In this document: piece after piece, positions 238 through 10,916 of the stretch
How the letters are laid out: every line of letters starts with the position of its first letter
Numbering within the stretch: the first letter of the stretch is position 1
Origin: Caldisericota bacterium
GTDB taxonomy: Bacteria > Caldisericota > Caldisericia > Cryosericales > Cryosericaceae
Assembly (NCBI GenBank): GCA_026390155.1
Contig: JAPLGL010000026.1
Coordinates: forward strand, 1 to 63,467
Reading direction: 5' to 3'
DNA: 63,467 nucleotides
Translations under genes and position numbers: made by a program
Notes under the pieces: generated by a model
Databases searched by the model: none
What the model saw: the letters and a program-made list of their open reading frames with translations, nothing else
What the model was told of the DNA's origin: nothing

Positions 238-262
238 CCTGTGTCTTGCCAGCAGGACATGA

Positions 263-292
263 CAATGGGCCACCTCGCGAGGCGGCCCATTG
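263..292. terminator. Hairpin between convergent genes, probable bidirectional terminator
   Basis: CAATGGGCC and GGCCCATTG form a perfect 9-bp outer stem around a second palindrome, CCTCGCGAGG. It lies between the end of the truncated plus-strand gene and the end of the minus-strand E1-like gene, where a shared terminator is expected. T-richness follows on the plus side (TGTGGTTGTGTT) but there is no perfect T run. Confidence 0.6.
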
Positions 293-313
293 TGGTTGTG
301 TTCGACAGCGGTG

Positions 314-1576
314 TCAGGGTTTTGCCTCTTCCTCCAGATGGCCACCGCACACCAGGCAGTCTGGATCACGGTCGACGCGGGCGCCGTACCACCGCAGGAT
401 GCTCGGGTGTGTCCACTTGAACCCCATGCGCGGCCAATTCGCGTAGGCTTCCTCGCGCCGGTTCGCCCAGACGTAGAAGTCCGAGACGAGGTCTTCATCG
501 ACCGTGGTCATTCCAGTCTCGATGCCGCGTGACAGTTCCACGAGGGCCATCTTGGCCACCATGTTCGCGATGGGTGCGATATCGGAAGACAGCCCGACCT
601 GGATCATGGCGTTGATCTTGTCTTCCTCGACATAGGCAGGCAATACGGCGAGAGCCTGCCGTTTCTGTGACATCTCTTCTTCGCGGCCGGCGACGGTGCC
701 GGAGGAGAACACACAGTTGTAACAGGGACCCTTCCATGGTCGCACGCGGAGGACCTCGCCGCCGGCGGCGCGTGTGATTGCACGACCATAGAGGGCGACC
801 TTGTTGTTGTTGAGGGACATCTGGTTGAGGTTGAAACGGCTCTGGTCATTGTCAGACGCAACGATGAGCAGGTCACAGGCTGCGACTGTATCCTCGACCT
901 GGCTCAGTGCCTGGTTGACATTGACTTCCATCGTCGACACCTGGGCGTACGGGTTCTTCTGCAACACCTGGTCCCGTACCGCGAGCGTCTTGTACCGCCC
1001 GAGATCATTTACGCCACACACATGGCGACTGATGTTCCCGAGCTCGAGCCGGTCGAAGTCGATGAGCGTGAAGTGGCCGACTCCTGCACGGGCCAGTTCC
1101 AGAGCGATAGGGGAACCACCGCTGCCAAGACCGACGATGACGACTTTTTTCTCGGCAAGCGCTGACGTCTCGAGGATCCCGGTGTTGCGGGAGTACAGCT
1201 CGGAGCGCCGAGGGACGAAGCGTGTGTCCGCGCCGGCGACACCTTTCTCAGTCACGATAAGTGCGCGGCAGGAGGGTGAACTCCCTGCGCCGGTCCCGGC
1301 TATCAGGATGACTATGGGAAGCCCGTCGGGGTCGACACGCCTGCGGATCTGCATCATGAGCTTCTCTTCGTCGAGGAACCCCGCAGAGTCCGCGTGCGTC
1401 GCAAAACAAGGGCAGACATACCCGGAAGGCGTAGAAGAAGGCTTCTCAGTATAGGCGTGGAAGACTGTCCAGTCGTCGAACCCGAAAGCTACGCCATCCA
1501 CCAACTGGACGTCGTCCCCCGTCTGGCTGAGCAGGTCACGTACCTGCTCCTCGAGAACGTAGACCAGGGGTGTCAT
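314..1576 (-). CDS. E1-like adenylyltransferase of the ThiF/UBA fold
   Basis: This 420-residue protein probably adenylates the C-terminus of a ubiquitin-like or sulfur-carrier protein. The Rossmann core starts near residue 144 with VVIVGLGSGGS (glycine loop 149-155), followed by the acidic LIDFD strand, a RH pair (184-185) and an NP..Q segment, all typical of E1/ThiF/MoeB. Cys285/Cys288 (CYNC) and Cys407/Cys410 (CLVC) look like the usual structural zinc site. Residues 1-140 form an extra N-terminal region of unknown fold. Its start overlaps the stop of the 66-residue gene by 4 bp (ATGA), so it is translationally coupled and last in the JAB-E2-66aa-E1 operon. A plain MoeB/ThiF role is less likely given the E2-like and JAB neighbours and the N-terminal extension. 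Confidence 0.9.
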   Translation of the reverse strand: MTPLVYVLEEQVRDLLSQTGDDVQLVDGVAFGFDDWTVFHAYTEKPSSTPSGYVCPCFATHADSAGFLDEEKLMMQIRRRVDPDGLPIVILIAGTGAGSSPSCRALIVTEKGVAGADTRFVPRRSELYSRNTGILETSALAEKKVVIVGLGSGGSPIALELARAGVGHFTLIDFDRLELGNISRHVCGVNDLGRYKTLAVRDQVLQKNPYAQVSTMEVNVNQALSQVEDTVAACDLLIVASDNDQSRFNLNQMSLNNNKVALYGRAITRAAGGEVLRVRPWKGPCYNCVFSSGTVAGREEEMSQKRQALAVLPAYVEEDKINAMIQVGLSSDIAPIANMVAKMALVELSRGIETGMTTVDEDLVSDFYVWANRREEAYANWPRMGFKWTHPSILRWYGARVDRDPDCLVCGGHLEEEAKP

Positions 1577-1773
1577 GGCAGTCGGCGGCTGAAAAAGCCG
1601 TCACGCGTCGGGTCATCCGCCGTCACAGCATCGGGAGAAAGCTGGGGAGCCTTCGCATCGACGAGCACCAGCTCCTGTGTCCGCGGGTCAAAGACCAGCT
1701 TCTTGGTCGTCACTTTGCCCTGTGTTATCTGTGAGAGATGATCCAGGACGCCCTTCGTATCTTTCTCTTCCAT
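1573..1773 (-). CDS. 66-residue protein of the E1/E2/JAB operon, candidate modifier or adaptor
   Basis: A small gene with a strong ribosome binding site (GAGGAGG, about 7 nt before ATG), 17 bp after the E2-like gene and overlapping the E1-like start by 4 bp. The protein is charged, with a possible beta hairpin (KKLVFDPRTQELVLVDAK) in the middle and a basic C-terminus ending SRRLP. It is near the size of a ubiquitin-like protein and sits where such proteins are often encoded. However, it has no visible beta-grasp pattern and no terminal Gly-Gly. It could be the modifier, a processed precursor, a substrate or an adaptor. I do not recognise a family. Confidence 0.75.
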   Translation of the reverse strand: MEEKDTKGVLDHLSQITQGKVTTKKLVFDPRTQELVLVDAKAPQLSPDAVTADDPTRDGFFSRRLP

Positions 1774-1790
1774 TGTGTTCCTCCTCGCGG

Positions 1791-2243
1791 TCAGGCTTGC
1801 ATGTGTGGCAAGTAGTGGTCTATGGCATAGCCGCTGTCCAGATGTCCTTCATAGGCTTCGACCCAGGCACGGATTTTCAGCAGGACCTTGGAGAATGTAA
1901 TATTGGGACTCCAGTGTGAGGCACTGTAGTGACAGATGCGTACTGTGCCGTTCTCTGGTTTCAGCAGGTGCATCGGGTACGACGTCCCCAAGTCGACCAG
2001 GGAGTGTCCAAAGCGGTCTCGGAGGACGGGGCTGATGATCTCGACGATAGGGACGGAGTTTGGCAAGTCGGCAGGCACACGGAGACGGATGAGGTACTCG
2101 TTGCCGGCATTGGAGCGCAAGGTCCCCTCGATGACGGCATGACCAGGAATGATACTGTCCTTCAGGAAGAACGTTGGGAAGTAGCGGGACAGGATGTCCA
2201 TTTCGAGGTGCAATCTGGCTGACTGCTGTGAAGACCAGGCCAT
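1791..2243 (-). CDS. Ubiquitin-conjugating (E2/UBC-fold) enzyme homologue
   Basis: The 150-residue protein has the UBC core layout: a P-rich strand pair (residues 50-75), then YPMHLLKPENGT, then VRICHYSASHWSPNITFSKVL with Cys104 in the place of the catalytic E2 cysteine, Trp111-Ser-Pro and the conserved following helix. In eukaryotic E2s the same block reads roughly G-x-ICL...W-SP...T-x-xVL. The start chosen at MAWSS has a GAGAGGG site lying in the end of the JAB gene; earlier in-frame starts would run through the JAB gene. Only 5 bp separate it from the JAB stop. Predicted role: accept the activated modifier from the E1-like protein as a thioester and transfer it. Confidence 0.85.
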   Translation of the reverse strand: MAWSSQQSARLHLEMDILSRYFPTFFLKDSIIPGHAVIEGTLRSNAGNEYLIRLRVPADLPNSVPIVEIISPVLRDRFGHSLVDLGTSYPMHLLKPENGTVRICHYSASHWSPNITFSKVLLKIRAWVEAYEGHLDSGYAIDHYLPHMQA

Positions 2244-2248
2244 GGGAC

Positions 2249-3316
2249 TCAACCCTCTCTTGCCGGGGGTGTTCCGGACTCCATGTGTTCCCTGTTCACA
2301 AGAAACGTTGTGACCAGTTCCTCGACGCGCGTCACGGCGTCTTCGCCGCGGTCCGTGTCTATGAAGAGCGTGCGCGGTGTTGTCCAGGACTCCTCCTGTC
2401 CTTCTGGAACGTCCACGGGCCTGCATTCGATGATGGGCTTGACGACAGGATAGGAATGCGGAAAAACGACCTCGAATGCGTACCCGTCGCGGTGAAACGA
2501 CAACGACACCCGTCCGTCCTCTCGCTGCAGGATTTCGACGTCGTGTTCGAGCGCCGACAATTCCTGGAAGAGGCGGTAGAGCTCGCTACGCCCTTCCGGC
2601 GTCGCCATGAACGAGAAGCTGGGGAAATTCGGGCTGTCTGTCTGTCGTGTGGTTGCTACGACGGCAAATGTTGTGCTCGGGATGGCTTCATAGGTTGAGG
2701 CGGCAGTCAGCGGTTCGCTCCGCGGGAATTCCTGCACGGCTTCGATAGCGGCGCGCACGGGACTGGCACCAGGCAGGATGAGCCACGTCGACTGCTGGCG
2801 TTCTCCACCTCCGTGCGCATGGTACAGGTACGCGCGCATCTCGACACCGTCGGACTTGTCGGCAAAGTTGCAGATCGTGAGCAGCCAGGCGTTGAACCCA
2901 TTCTTGTCGAGTGCCCGCTGCATTGTGTTTGAGTCACCTCTGGATGGTTCCGTGAGTCCCAGCCTGTGGTGCGAGTGCCACGTGCCAACATGCTGCAGAC
3001 CGTGCAGGTCGCGGAGGATGCCGCCGGCGGACTTGAGGAACGGAGATTCCTGGTAGAAGGCAGTGTCGTTGTGGTCAGCATGATCGCCAGGGCCGAGCAC
3101 GTACTCGATCATCGGTGAGCCCGTGTGGGTCCAAAAGCCAAAGAGGTCTCCGCCGGTCTCGATGCCTGGATAATCTGCTACAAAACGAGCCATGATCTCC
3201 AGTTCACCGTCGTAGATGAGCGCCTTGTCACCATGCAGTTCCGTGGGTGCTTCAGTCCGCCTCTGGACTGAAGCCGCCAGGGTTCGCCTGAATCTATCGC
3301 TGTGCCCTCTTGCCAT
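2249..3316 (-). CDS. JAB/MPN (JAMM) isopeptidase with C-terminal RWD/E2-like domain
   Basis: The 355-residue protein begins with a JAMM metalloprotease domain: Glu53 (ETGG), then GTWHSHHRLGL with His114 and His116, and Ser125/Asp128 in PSRGD, the expected zinc ligands and catalytic residues. One more residue than usual lies between the second His and the Ser. Residues about 240-340 are a second domain; the stretch YAFEVVFPHSYPVVKPIIECRP resembles the strand-loop of UBC/RWD folds but lacks a catalytic Cys block. The start at 3316 has GGAGGAACA just upstream and is preferred over the longer reading. It is the first gene of the operon. JAB enzymes of such cassettes process the modifier or remove it from targets. 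Confidence 0.88.
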   Translation of the reverse strand: MARGHSDRFRRTLAASVQRRTEAPTELHGDKALIYDGELEIMARFVADYPGIETGGDLFGFWTHTGSPMIEYVLGPGDHADHNDTAFYQESPFLKSAGGILRDLHGLQHVGTWHSHHRLGLTEPSRGDSNTMQRALDKNGFNAWLLTICNFADKSDGVEMRAYLYHAHGGGERQQSTWLILPGASPVRAAIEAVQEFPRSEPLTAASTYEAIPSTTFAVVATTRQTDSPNFPSFSFMATPEGRSELYRLFQELSALEHDVEILQREDGRVSLSFHRDGYAFEVVFPHSYPVVKPIIECRPVDVPEGQEESWTTPRTLFIDTDRGEDAVTRVEELVTTFLVNREHMESGTPPAREG

Positions 3317-3361
3317 TGTTCCTCCCCTGAAGTCTCCTCTCAGAGTCCTCTGACTGCGCAA

Positions 3362-3388
3362 AGTATACCACGAGGTGCAGAACGTCAA
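3362..3388 (-). promoter_or_regulatory. Probable promoter of the JAB-E2-66aa-E1 operon
   Basis: Read on the minus strand, TTGACG and TATACT are separated by 15 bp, with the predicted start about 40 nt before the JAB ATG. Both boxes are close to sigma-70 consensus; the spacer is 1-2 bp short. Confidence 0.6.
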
Positions 3389-9701: not shown

Positions 9702-10916
9702 CTAGTACGAGTCGAGATACCTGCTCTGCTCTGCGGTCAGCGTGTCGATGGCCAAGCCACGAGATGCAAGAAATGCCCTCGACGCCATGTCATCGATTGC
9801 CTCCGGTACAGTGATGAGTTCCTTGGGCAGAGACTCCTGGTGTTTGACCAGGTACTCGCCGGACAACGCCTGCAACGCGAATGTCAGGTCCATGATCTCG
9901 ATGGGATGCCCGTCGGCGCATGCCAGGTTCACGAGGCGCCCCTCGCCCAGGATGTAGAAGTGCTTGCCATCGCAAGCGTACTCCTCGATGTTATGCCGGA
10001 CCTCGTGGTGCTGGGGGTCCTTGTTGCGCAAGTAGTGGACGTCGACTTCGATATCGAAGTGCCCGGCGTTGCACAGGATGGCACCGTCTTTCATGACGTC
10101 GAAATGCTGCCTGGTGATGACCTTGTCGTCGCCGGTACATGTGATGAAGATCTCTCCGATCTTTGCGGCCTCGAGCATAGGCATGACCTGATAGCCTTCC
10201 ATGTGTGCATCGACAGCCTTCACGGGATCGACTTCTGTGACGATGACCTGTGCGCCGAGACCTCTGGCACGCATGGCTACGCCCTTGCCGACCCATCCAT
10301 ATCCCACGACGACCACGACCCTGCCGGCGATGTTCATGTTTGTCGTCCGCAGAATGGCGTCCCAGGCGGACTGTCCTGTGCCAAAACGGTTGTCGAAGAG
10401 GTGTTTGCACAGCCCCTCGTTGACTCCGATGACCGGGAATGACAGTTTGCCCGCGCGCGCGAGTGCCCTGTCGCGGATGACGCCGGTCGTGGTCTCTTCG
10501 CATGCGCCCAGAATGGCGGGAAGCAGTTCCGGGTGGTCGAAATGAACCGCGTTCACGAGATCTCCACCGTCATCGATCAGGAGATTGGGCTTGGTGGCGA
10601 GGACGCGGGTGAAGTACTCCTTGTACTCAGCCGGCGTCTCGCCGCGTTTGGCAAAGACGGTGACCCCTCGTTCCGCAAGTGCCTGAGCCACGTCATCCTG
10701 CGTGGTGATGGGGTTGGATGCCGTAACGGCGACGTGAGCACCGCCACGTAGCATCACGTAGGCCAGGTTGGCTGTCTTGGCCTCCAGGTGGAGGGCGATG
10801 ACGACGTTGAGCCCGGCAAAAGGCTGTTCCTTCTCGAAGCGTTCTGCGACTGAGGACAGGATTGGCATGTGACGGATCGCCCACTGCATTTTCTGCTCAC
10901 CCGACTGACTGCTCAT
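9702..10916 (-). CDS. ahcY: Adenosylhomocysteinase (short, prokaryotic type)
   Basis: A 404-residue enzyme splitting S-adenosylhomocysteine into adenosine and homocysteine, the step that removes the product of methyltransferases. Features include SNPITTQDDVAQAL, the DDGGDLV loop, a NMNIAGRVVVVVGYGWVGKG NAD-binding turn and the C-terminal KHQESLPK and YLDSY end. The protein lacks the roughly 40-residue insertion of longer bacterial forms, as in many anaerobes and archaea. GGGGGTGA lies just before the ATG. A hairpin terminator separates it from the ABC transporter genes upstream. That transporter is of nucleoside type, which fits adenosine handling. Confidence 0.95.
   Translation of the reverse strand: MSSQSGEQKMQWAIRHMPILSSVAERFEKEQPFAGLNVVIALHLEAKTANLAYVMLRGGAHVAVTASNPITTQDDVAQALAERGVTVFAKRGETPAEYKEYFTRVLATKPNLLIDDGGDLVNAVHFDHPELLPAILGACEETTTGVIRDRALARAGKLSFPVIGVNEGLCKHLFDNRFGTGQSAWDAILRTTNMNIAGRVVVVVGYGWVGKGVAMRARGLGAQVIVTEVDPVKAVDAHMEGYQVMPMLEAAKIGEIFITCTGDDKVITRQHFDVMKDGAILCNAGHFDIEVDVHYLRNKDPQHHEVRHNIEEYACDGKHFYILGEGRLVNLACADGHPIEIMDLTFALQALSGEYLVKHQESLPKELITVPEAIDDMASRAFLASRGLAIDTLTAEQSRYLDSY

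What the first reader, a model, noticed from the sequence alone, without database searches (positions are those of the whole stretch)
314..3388. Compact ubiquitin-like conjugation cassette: JAB, E2, 66-residue protein, E1
Four coupled genes encode a JAMM isopeptidase, an E2-fold protein with Cys104 in the catalytic block, a small protein and an E1-like enzyme, with a strong promoter ahead. Such sets are known in bacteria (Bil- and Cap2/Cap3-like systems), and some protect against phage. This one has no CD-NTase, no obvious ubiquitin-like protein with a Gly-Gly end, and a gene order that differs from BilABCD (Ubl, E2, JAB, E1). It may be a variant with an unrecognised modifier.
Basis: partly seen in the sequence, partly recalled or inferred. 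Interest (0 to 1): 0.85.

Follow-up and report, generated by a model that had tools for sequence, protein, structure and literature searches.

The report
Orphan bacterial ubiquitin-style conjugation operon
A little-known soil and sediment bacterium (Cryosericum group) carries a compact, carefully maintained set of enzymes resembling the machinery that tags proteins with ubiquitin in our own cells, but the protein it would attach is not in the set, and the small extra protein looks like a detached piece of the activating enzyme, not the tag.

Summary
The four genes are real and lie where stated (minus strand): JAB 3316-2249, E2 2243-1791, 66-residue protein 1773-1573, E1 1576-314. They are conserved in order across Candidatus Cryosericum under purifying selection. 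JAMM ligands, E2 Cys104 and E1 adenylation residues are invariant even in relatives at 24-37% identity. The E2 model has a UBC-like fold. The closest profiles are E1, E2 and JAB models of CBASS defence systems, and one distant relative, on a Bradyrhizobium plasmid, lies directly beside a (frameshifted) CD-NTase, Cap4 nuclease-SAVED and a TIR protein. In Cryosericum no CD-NTase lies near the operon, nor anywhere in three relatives at least 91% complete that carry it. The 66-residue protein is probably not the modifier: in three of four distant relatives the same module is fused to the E1 N-terminus, and it models as helix plus hairpin, not beta-grasp. E1 has no crossover-loop cysteine in any lineage. 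One Cryosericum lost the operon by a deletion that left a scar; another carries a decayed copy, so it is dispensable. Best reading: an orphan, CBASS-like conjugation module whose substrate is unlinked. Function, including phage defence, is untested.

The parts
2249..3316 (-). JAB/JAMM metallopeptidase, 355 aa; JAMM residues E53, H114, H116, S125, D128; C-terminal ~100 aa weakly RWD/UBC-like
   Evidence: C-terminal RWD match only E=0.2, hhalign with E2 not significant
1791..2243 (-). stand-alone E2-like (UBC fold) protein, 150 aa, putative catalytic Cys104 followed by invariant His105; H92 roughly in the place of the HPN histidine
1573..1773 (-). 66-residue protein (SM66): helix + beta-hairpin + tail; homologous to the N-terminal module of fused E1s elsewhere; 4-bp overlap with the E1 start
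314..1576 (-). E1-like adenylating enzyme, 420 aa; GxGxxG, R184, K196, D242, zinc-type cysteines C285/C288/C407/C410; no crossover-loop cysteine
3362..3388 (-). candidate promoter TTGACG-15-TATACT; -10 conserved in orthologs
   Evidence: not returned by the consensus scan
262..293 (.). 16-bp inverted repeat between the convergent E1 and DnaJ-like genes, possible bidirectional terminator

Best explanation
The operon encodes an orphan, CBASS-type ubiquitin-like conjugation module. The E1, with SM66 as its detached N-terminal module, adenylates the C-terminus of a partner protein; because no lineage keeps a crossover-loop cysteine in E1, the adenylate is probably handed directly to Cys104 of the separate E2, which transfers it to a target. 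The JAB metallopeptidase removes the adduct. In the Bradyrhizobium relative the partner is probably the neighbouring CD-NTase, as in type II CBASS; in Cryosericum the partner is encoded elsewhere and is not a SMODS-type CD-NTase. Shown: gene content, conservation, catalytic residues, UBC-like E2 model, fusion of the SM module to E1, CBASS context of one relative, loss in some lineages. Inferred: catalysis, direct E1-to-E2 transfer, identity of the partner, and an accessory (probably defence or stress) role.
For: The best profile of the E1 in PADLOC is a CBASS E1 model (PDLC00829, 5e-36, residues 101-411); E2 and JAB also hit CBASS models, and E1 and JAB of the relatives do likewise. Relatives of the whole trio were found on a Bradyrhizobium barranii plasmid (32% E2 identity, E=1e-14), in genomes G329 and G426 and in contig L052. 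The Bradyrhizobium trio is directly followed by SMODS CD-NTase, Cap4 nuclease+SAVED and TIR genes. The SM module is fused to E1 in L048, L052 and L053 and separated from E1 by one in-frame TGA in L049. JAMM, Cys104-His105 and adenylation residues invariant. E2 model pTM 0.74, most top matches E2/UEV/UFC1. Dispensable: deletion scar in G004, decayed copy in SMC5.
Against: No SMODS CD-NTase in any genome with an intact copy, so the CBASS parallel rests on profile matches and on one distant relative whose CD-NTase is itself frameshifted. Foldseek E-values for the E2 are modest (best 0.015). The genus keeps the operon at one syntenic locus among ordinary chromosomal genes, unusual for a defence system. 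Fusion of SM to E1 is seen in three relatives only, and the SM66-to-fused-E1 match is short (BLASTP E=0.003).
Confidence: 0.6

Rival explanations
1. SM66 is the modifier: JAB trims its C-terminal tail after the invariant DDPTRDG, E1 activates the new glycine, E2 conjugates it, in the manner of UFM1 but without a beta-grasp (a Pup-like tag).
For: Invariant TADDPTRDGFF followed by a tail that varies in length and sequence (FFAC, FFAR, FFSR, FFSRRLP); strong purifying selection; sits in the operon where a Ubl would be expected.
Against: The same module is part of the E1 polypeptide in three distant relatives and continues straight into E1; the DLGW segment is conserved both in a free (L049) and in a fused (L053) form, so it is not kept as a free C-terminus; L052 has no glycine at the site; the model is helix plus hairpin.
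Confidence: 0.12
2. A housekeeping or stress pathway that tags host proteins with a MoaD/ThiS-type beta-grasp protein encoded elsewhere.
For: Genus genomes encode two or more ThiS-family proteins; the locus is chromosomal and syntenic.
Against: ThiS-family proteins are equally present in G004, which lost the operon; loss and decay of the operon show it is not essential.
Confidence: 0.15
3. The module acts in trans with a CD-NTase acquired on mobile elements.
For: Bradyrhizobium context; two Cryosericum genomes (G006, G007) carry CD-NTases elsewhere.
Against: In those two genomes the operon was not found or is decayed (G006 is only 61% complete); neither CD-NTase has E1/E2 neighbours in the stretches read.
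Confidence: 0.07
4. The E1 is a MccB-like peptide-modifying adenylase and SM66 its precursor peptide; E2 and JAB finish a ribosomally made small molecule.
For: No crossover cysteine, as in MccB-type enzymes; MccB among the better PDB profile matches; short conserved peptide next to E1.
Against: An E2 with invariant Cys104-His105 and a complete JAMM site are not part of MccB pathways (own knowledge); no evident export or self-immunity gene in the operon; SM is fused to E1 in relatives.
Confidence: 0.06

Closest known systems
Type II CBASS conjugation arm (Cap2 E2-E1, Cap3 JAB)
   Same: E1, E2 and JAB all match PADLOC CBASS models; one relative is inside a CBASS operon; no Ubl gene needed
   Different: E2 and E1 are separate proteins; extra SM module; no crossover-loop cysteine; no CD-NTase or effector in Cryosericum
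Bil (BilABCD; I take it to correspond to operon type 6d of Iyer et al. 2006, PMC1779556)
   Same: stand-alone E2, JAB and E1
   Different: no beta-grasp Ubl; order JAB-E2-SM-E1; 6d JABs have an N-terminal domain, here the extension is C-terminal
Bub / polyUbl operons (type 6e, PMC1779556; Bub operons discussed in PMC13373217)
   Same: E1 and JAB in one operon; RWD/E2-like domains
   Different: no tandem Ubl protein; JAB not fused to E1; E2 keeps its cysteine
6A-MBL system (NCBIfam NF058523)
   Same: E1, E2 and JAB domains; weak match of E1 (5e-16) and JAB (5e-5)
   Different: triple-fusion protein plus metallo-beta-lactamase (type 6a, PMC1779556); far below the curated cut-off of 320 bits

Membership tests
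Type II CBASS | CD-NTase in the operon | tested here: not met
   None among the flanking genes; no SMODS hit in G000 nor in G009, G011, G013 (91-97% complete, operon intact). G000 itself is only 80% complete.
Type II CBASS | E1/E2/JAB proteins of the CBASS type | tested here: met
   PADLOC E1-E2 PDLC00829 5e-36, E2 PDLC00877 3e-7, JAB PDLC00890 2e-7
Type II CBASS | cyclic-nucleotide effector | tested here: not met
   No effector gene adjacent
Bil | beta-grasp Ubl (BilA) | tested here: not met
   No Ubl family hit for SM66; module models as helix + hairpin
Bil | E1, E2 and JAB present | tested here: met
Bub (polyUbl operons) | tandem Ubl protein and JAB-E1 fusion | tested here: not met
JAMM metalloprotease | E ... 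HxH ... SxxD | tested here: met
   E53, H114, H116, S125, D128 invariant in five sequences of three lineages; spacing HxHx(8)S is one residue longer than usual
E2 (UBC) | UBC fold with catalytic cysteine | tested here: met
   pTM 0.74 model, most top Foldseek hits E2/UEV/UFC1 with probability up to 0.98 but best E only 0.015; C104-H105 invariant
Canonical E1 | catalytic cysteine in crossover loop | tested here: not met
   No Cys between C288 and C407 in any lineage
Anti-phage defence system | protects against phage | not testable with these tools
   needs an experiment

The most novel reading that the evidence does not exclude
SM66 is a non-beta-grasp protein modifier attached by an E1/E2 cascade, exposed by JAB cleavage after DDPTRDG; to my knowledge this would be the first bacterial E1/E2 system with a Pup-like, non-ubiquitin-fold tag.
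Probability: 0.1. Interest if true: 0.9.

Novelty: new variant of a known kind. Interest (0 to 1): 0.5.

Why it matters
It shows the E1/E2/JAB arm of a CBASS-like system living alone, kept under selection in a candidate phylum without its CD-NTase. That raises a testable question: what does a bacterial conjugation cascade modify when neither a Ubl nor a CD-NTase is present? The split E1 module and the missing E1 cysteine would also bear on how such cascades work with fewer thioester steps.

Tried and rejected
UFM1-like processing of SM66 (my first favourite after seeing DGFF plus a variable tail) was dropped when the module turned up fused to E1 in L048, L052 and L053. RWD identity of the JAB C-terminus: Pfam RWD E=0.2 and hhalign probability 1%, so left as a suggestion. 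Viral-contig scans with E1 and E2 found nothing; the JAB profile found one contig. Two broad, overlapping genome samples showed the family is rare outside Cryosericum. The SM-E1 of L052 (truncated contig) modelled poorly beyond residue 50 (mean pLDDT 43). The key papers on Bil and Bub (Chambers 2024, Gong 2025, Ye 2026) are not in the library, so comparisons with them rest on Iyer et al. 2006 (PMC1779556), on PMC13373217 and on my own knowledge; whether Ye 2026 already describes a similar E1 without cysteine could not be checked.

Full report
OBSERVATION. JAB and E2 are 5 bp apart, E2 and SM66 17 bp, and SM66 overlaps E1 by 4 bp (ATGA). A conserved -10 hexamer (TATACT) lies about 45 bp upstream of the JAB start in all seven orthologous regions. 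A 16-bp inverted repeat closes the operon against the convergent DnaJ-like gene.

ORGANISM. The window is G000:C23 of a 1.6-Mb, 160-contig draft (80.6% complete). Its closest named relatives are Candidatus Cryosericum (hinesii, septentrionale, terrychapinii, odellii) and unnamed Caldiserica genomes.

CONSERVATION. The four genes occur in the same order in at least eight Cryosericum genomes. Identity to the window is roughly 54-82% for JAB, 78-95% for E2, 79-90% for SM66 and 74-90% for E1. dN/dS is 0.04-0.21 wherever dS is not saturated. So the genes are real and selected, the JAB evolving fastest. The locus is syntenic across the genus, between DMT-family transporter genes and a DnaJ/TPR/PP2C-phosphatase-like group (names by eye), with no mobile or defence genes next to it.

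LOSS. G004 (94% complete) lacks the operon but keeps both flanks: the sequence runs from the transporter through the JAB start (ATGGCAAGA) straight into about 14 codons of the E1 C-terminal region and then the terminator region. This is a deletion scar, so the operon was once there. In Ca. C. odellii SMC5 the E2 has lost 57 bp in frame and the E1 carries an 80-bp deletion and a 1-bp insertion. The operon is therefore dispensable.

ENZYMES. JAB: Prok-JAB E=1.3e-4, PADLOC JAB 2e-7; the JAMM residues E53, H114, H116, S125 and D128 are invariant across the Cryosericum, Bradyrhizobium and G329 proteins. E2: UQ_con matches all eight orthologs (best 4e-4), and PDB sequence matches centre on UBE2D around the catalytic cysteine, though none is significant alone. 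The AlphaFold2 model (pTM 0.74, pLDDT 76) matches mainly E2, UEV and UFC1 structures (probability up to 0.98, best E 0.015). C104-H105 is invariant down to 30% identity. E1: ThiF E=8e-34 and PADLOC CBASS E1 5e-36; adenylation residues and the zinc-type cysteines C285, C288, C407 and C410 are invariant, and no lineage has a cysteine between C288 and C407, where canonical E1s carry the catalytic one. That E1 therefore skips a thioester step is inference.

DISTANT RELATIVES. A tblastn search of plasmids found the E2 at 32% identity on Bradyrhizobium barranii plasmids. There the order is JAB-E2-E1, and the next genes are a SMODS CD-NTase (E=8e-9, split by a frameshift), Cap4 nuclease with SAVED (SAVED 9e-24) and a TIR protein: a CBASS operon. 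Genome searches found two more (G329, G426), which share a HerA/VirB4-like ATPase beside the trio, and the viral collection gave L052, next to a serine recombinase and terminase-like genes. Outside Cryosericum the family is rare: one clear hit in the 386 genomes and two in the 386, which overlap.

SM66. In L048, L052 and L053 the E1 begins with a module aligning to SM66 (core K/R-L-V-[YF]-[DN], and in the rhizobial pair T-A-D-D), BLASTP E=0.003 between SM66 and the Bradyrhizobium E1. In L049 the module is a separate ORF in the same frame as E1, divided from it by one TGA and one codon. In Cryosericum it is out of frame with E1. It models as one helix and one hairpin (pLDDT about 73), too little for a beta-grasp. 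The simplest reading is that SM66 is a detached E1 module. The alternative, a modifier trimmed at DDPTRDG, cannot be excluded from sequence but is disfavoured.

WHAT IS MISSING. No CD-NTase lies near the operon, and none was found by the SMODS model in G000 or in the near-complete G009, G011 and G013. The two Cryosericum genomes with CD-NTases have a decayed operon (G007) or none found (G006, 61% complete). ThiS-family proteins exist in the genus but are equally present in G004, which lost the operon.

VERDICT. The operon works like, and is related to, the conjugation arm of type II CBASS, but is not a CBASS system: the defining CD-NTase was tested and not met. It is not Bil or Bub: no Ubl. 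It is best called an orphan CBASS-like E1/E2/JAB module with a split E1. Confidence 0.6; function untested.

Noticed in passing
L048:9920-10791: The Bradyrhizobium CD-NTase beside the trio is split by a frameshift into overlapping ORFs 9920-10423 and 10171-10791; its C-terminus reads KLFGSTFGA.
   Followed up: partly
L052:5448-6722: The JAB of this contig carries an N-terminal helix-turn-helix-like region, so the peptidase may also be a regulator.
   Followed up: no
L049:2551-5304 and L053:1403-4381: A HerA/VirB4-like ATPase (PADLOC mad8/HerA hits for L053) lies next to the trio in both G329 and G426, together with a weakly related upstream protein: a possible larger defence cluster.
   Followed up: partly
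L076:5390-6839: A CD-NTase followed by a 212-aa protein that looks like a SLATT-type membrane effector in Cryosericum G006, a minimal CBASS candidate.
   Followed up: no
G000:C160:29144-29290 (L002): A second JAB-domain gene in the same genome.
   Followed up: no
L049:6477-6490: A single in-frame TGA separates the SM module from E1 in G329; true stop, recent mutation or readthrough is open.
   Followed up: partly
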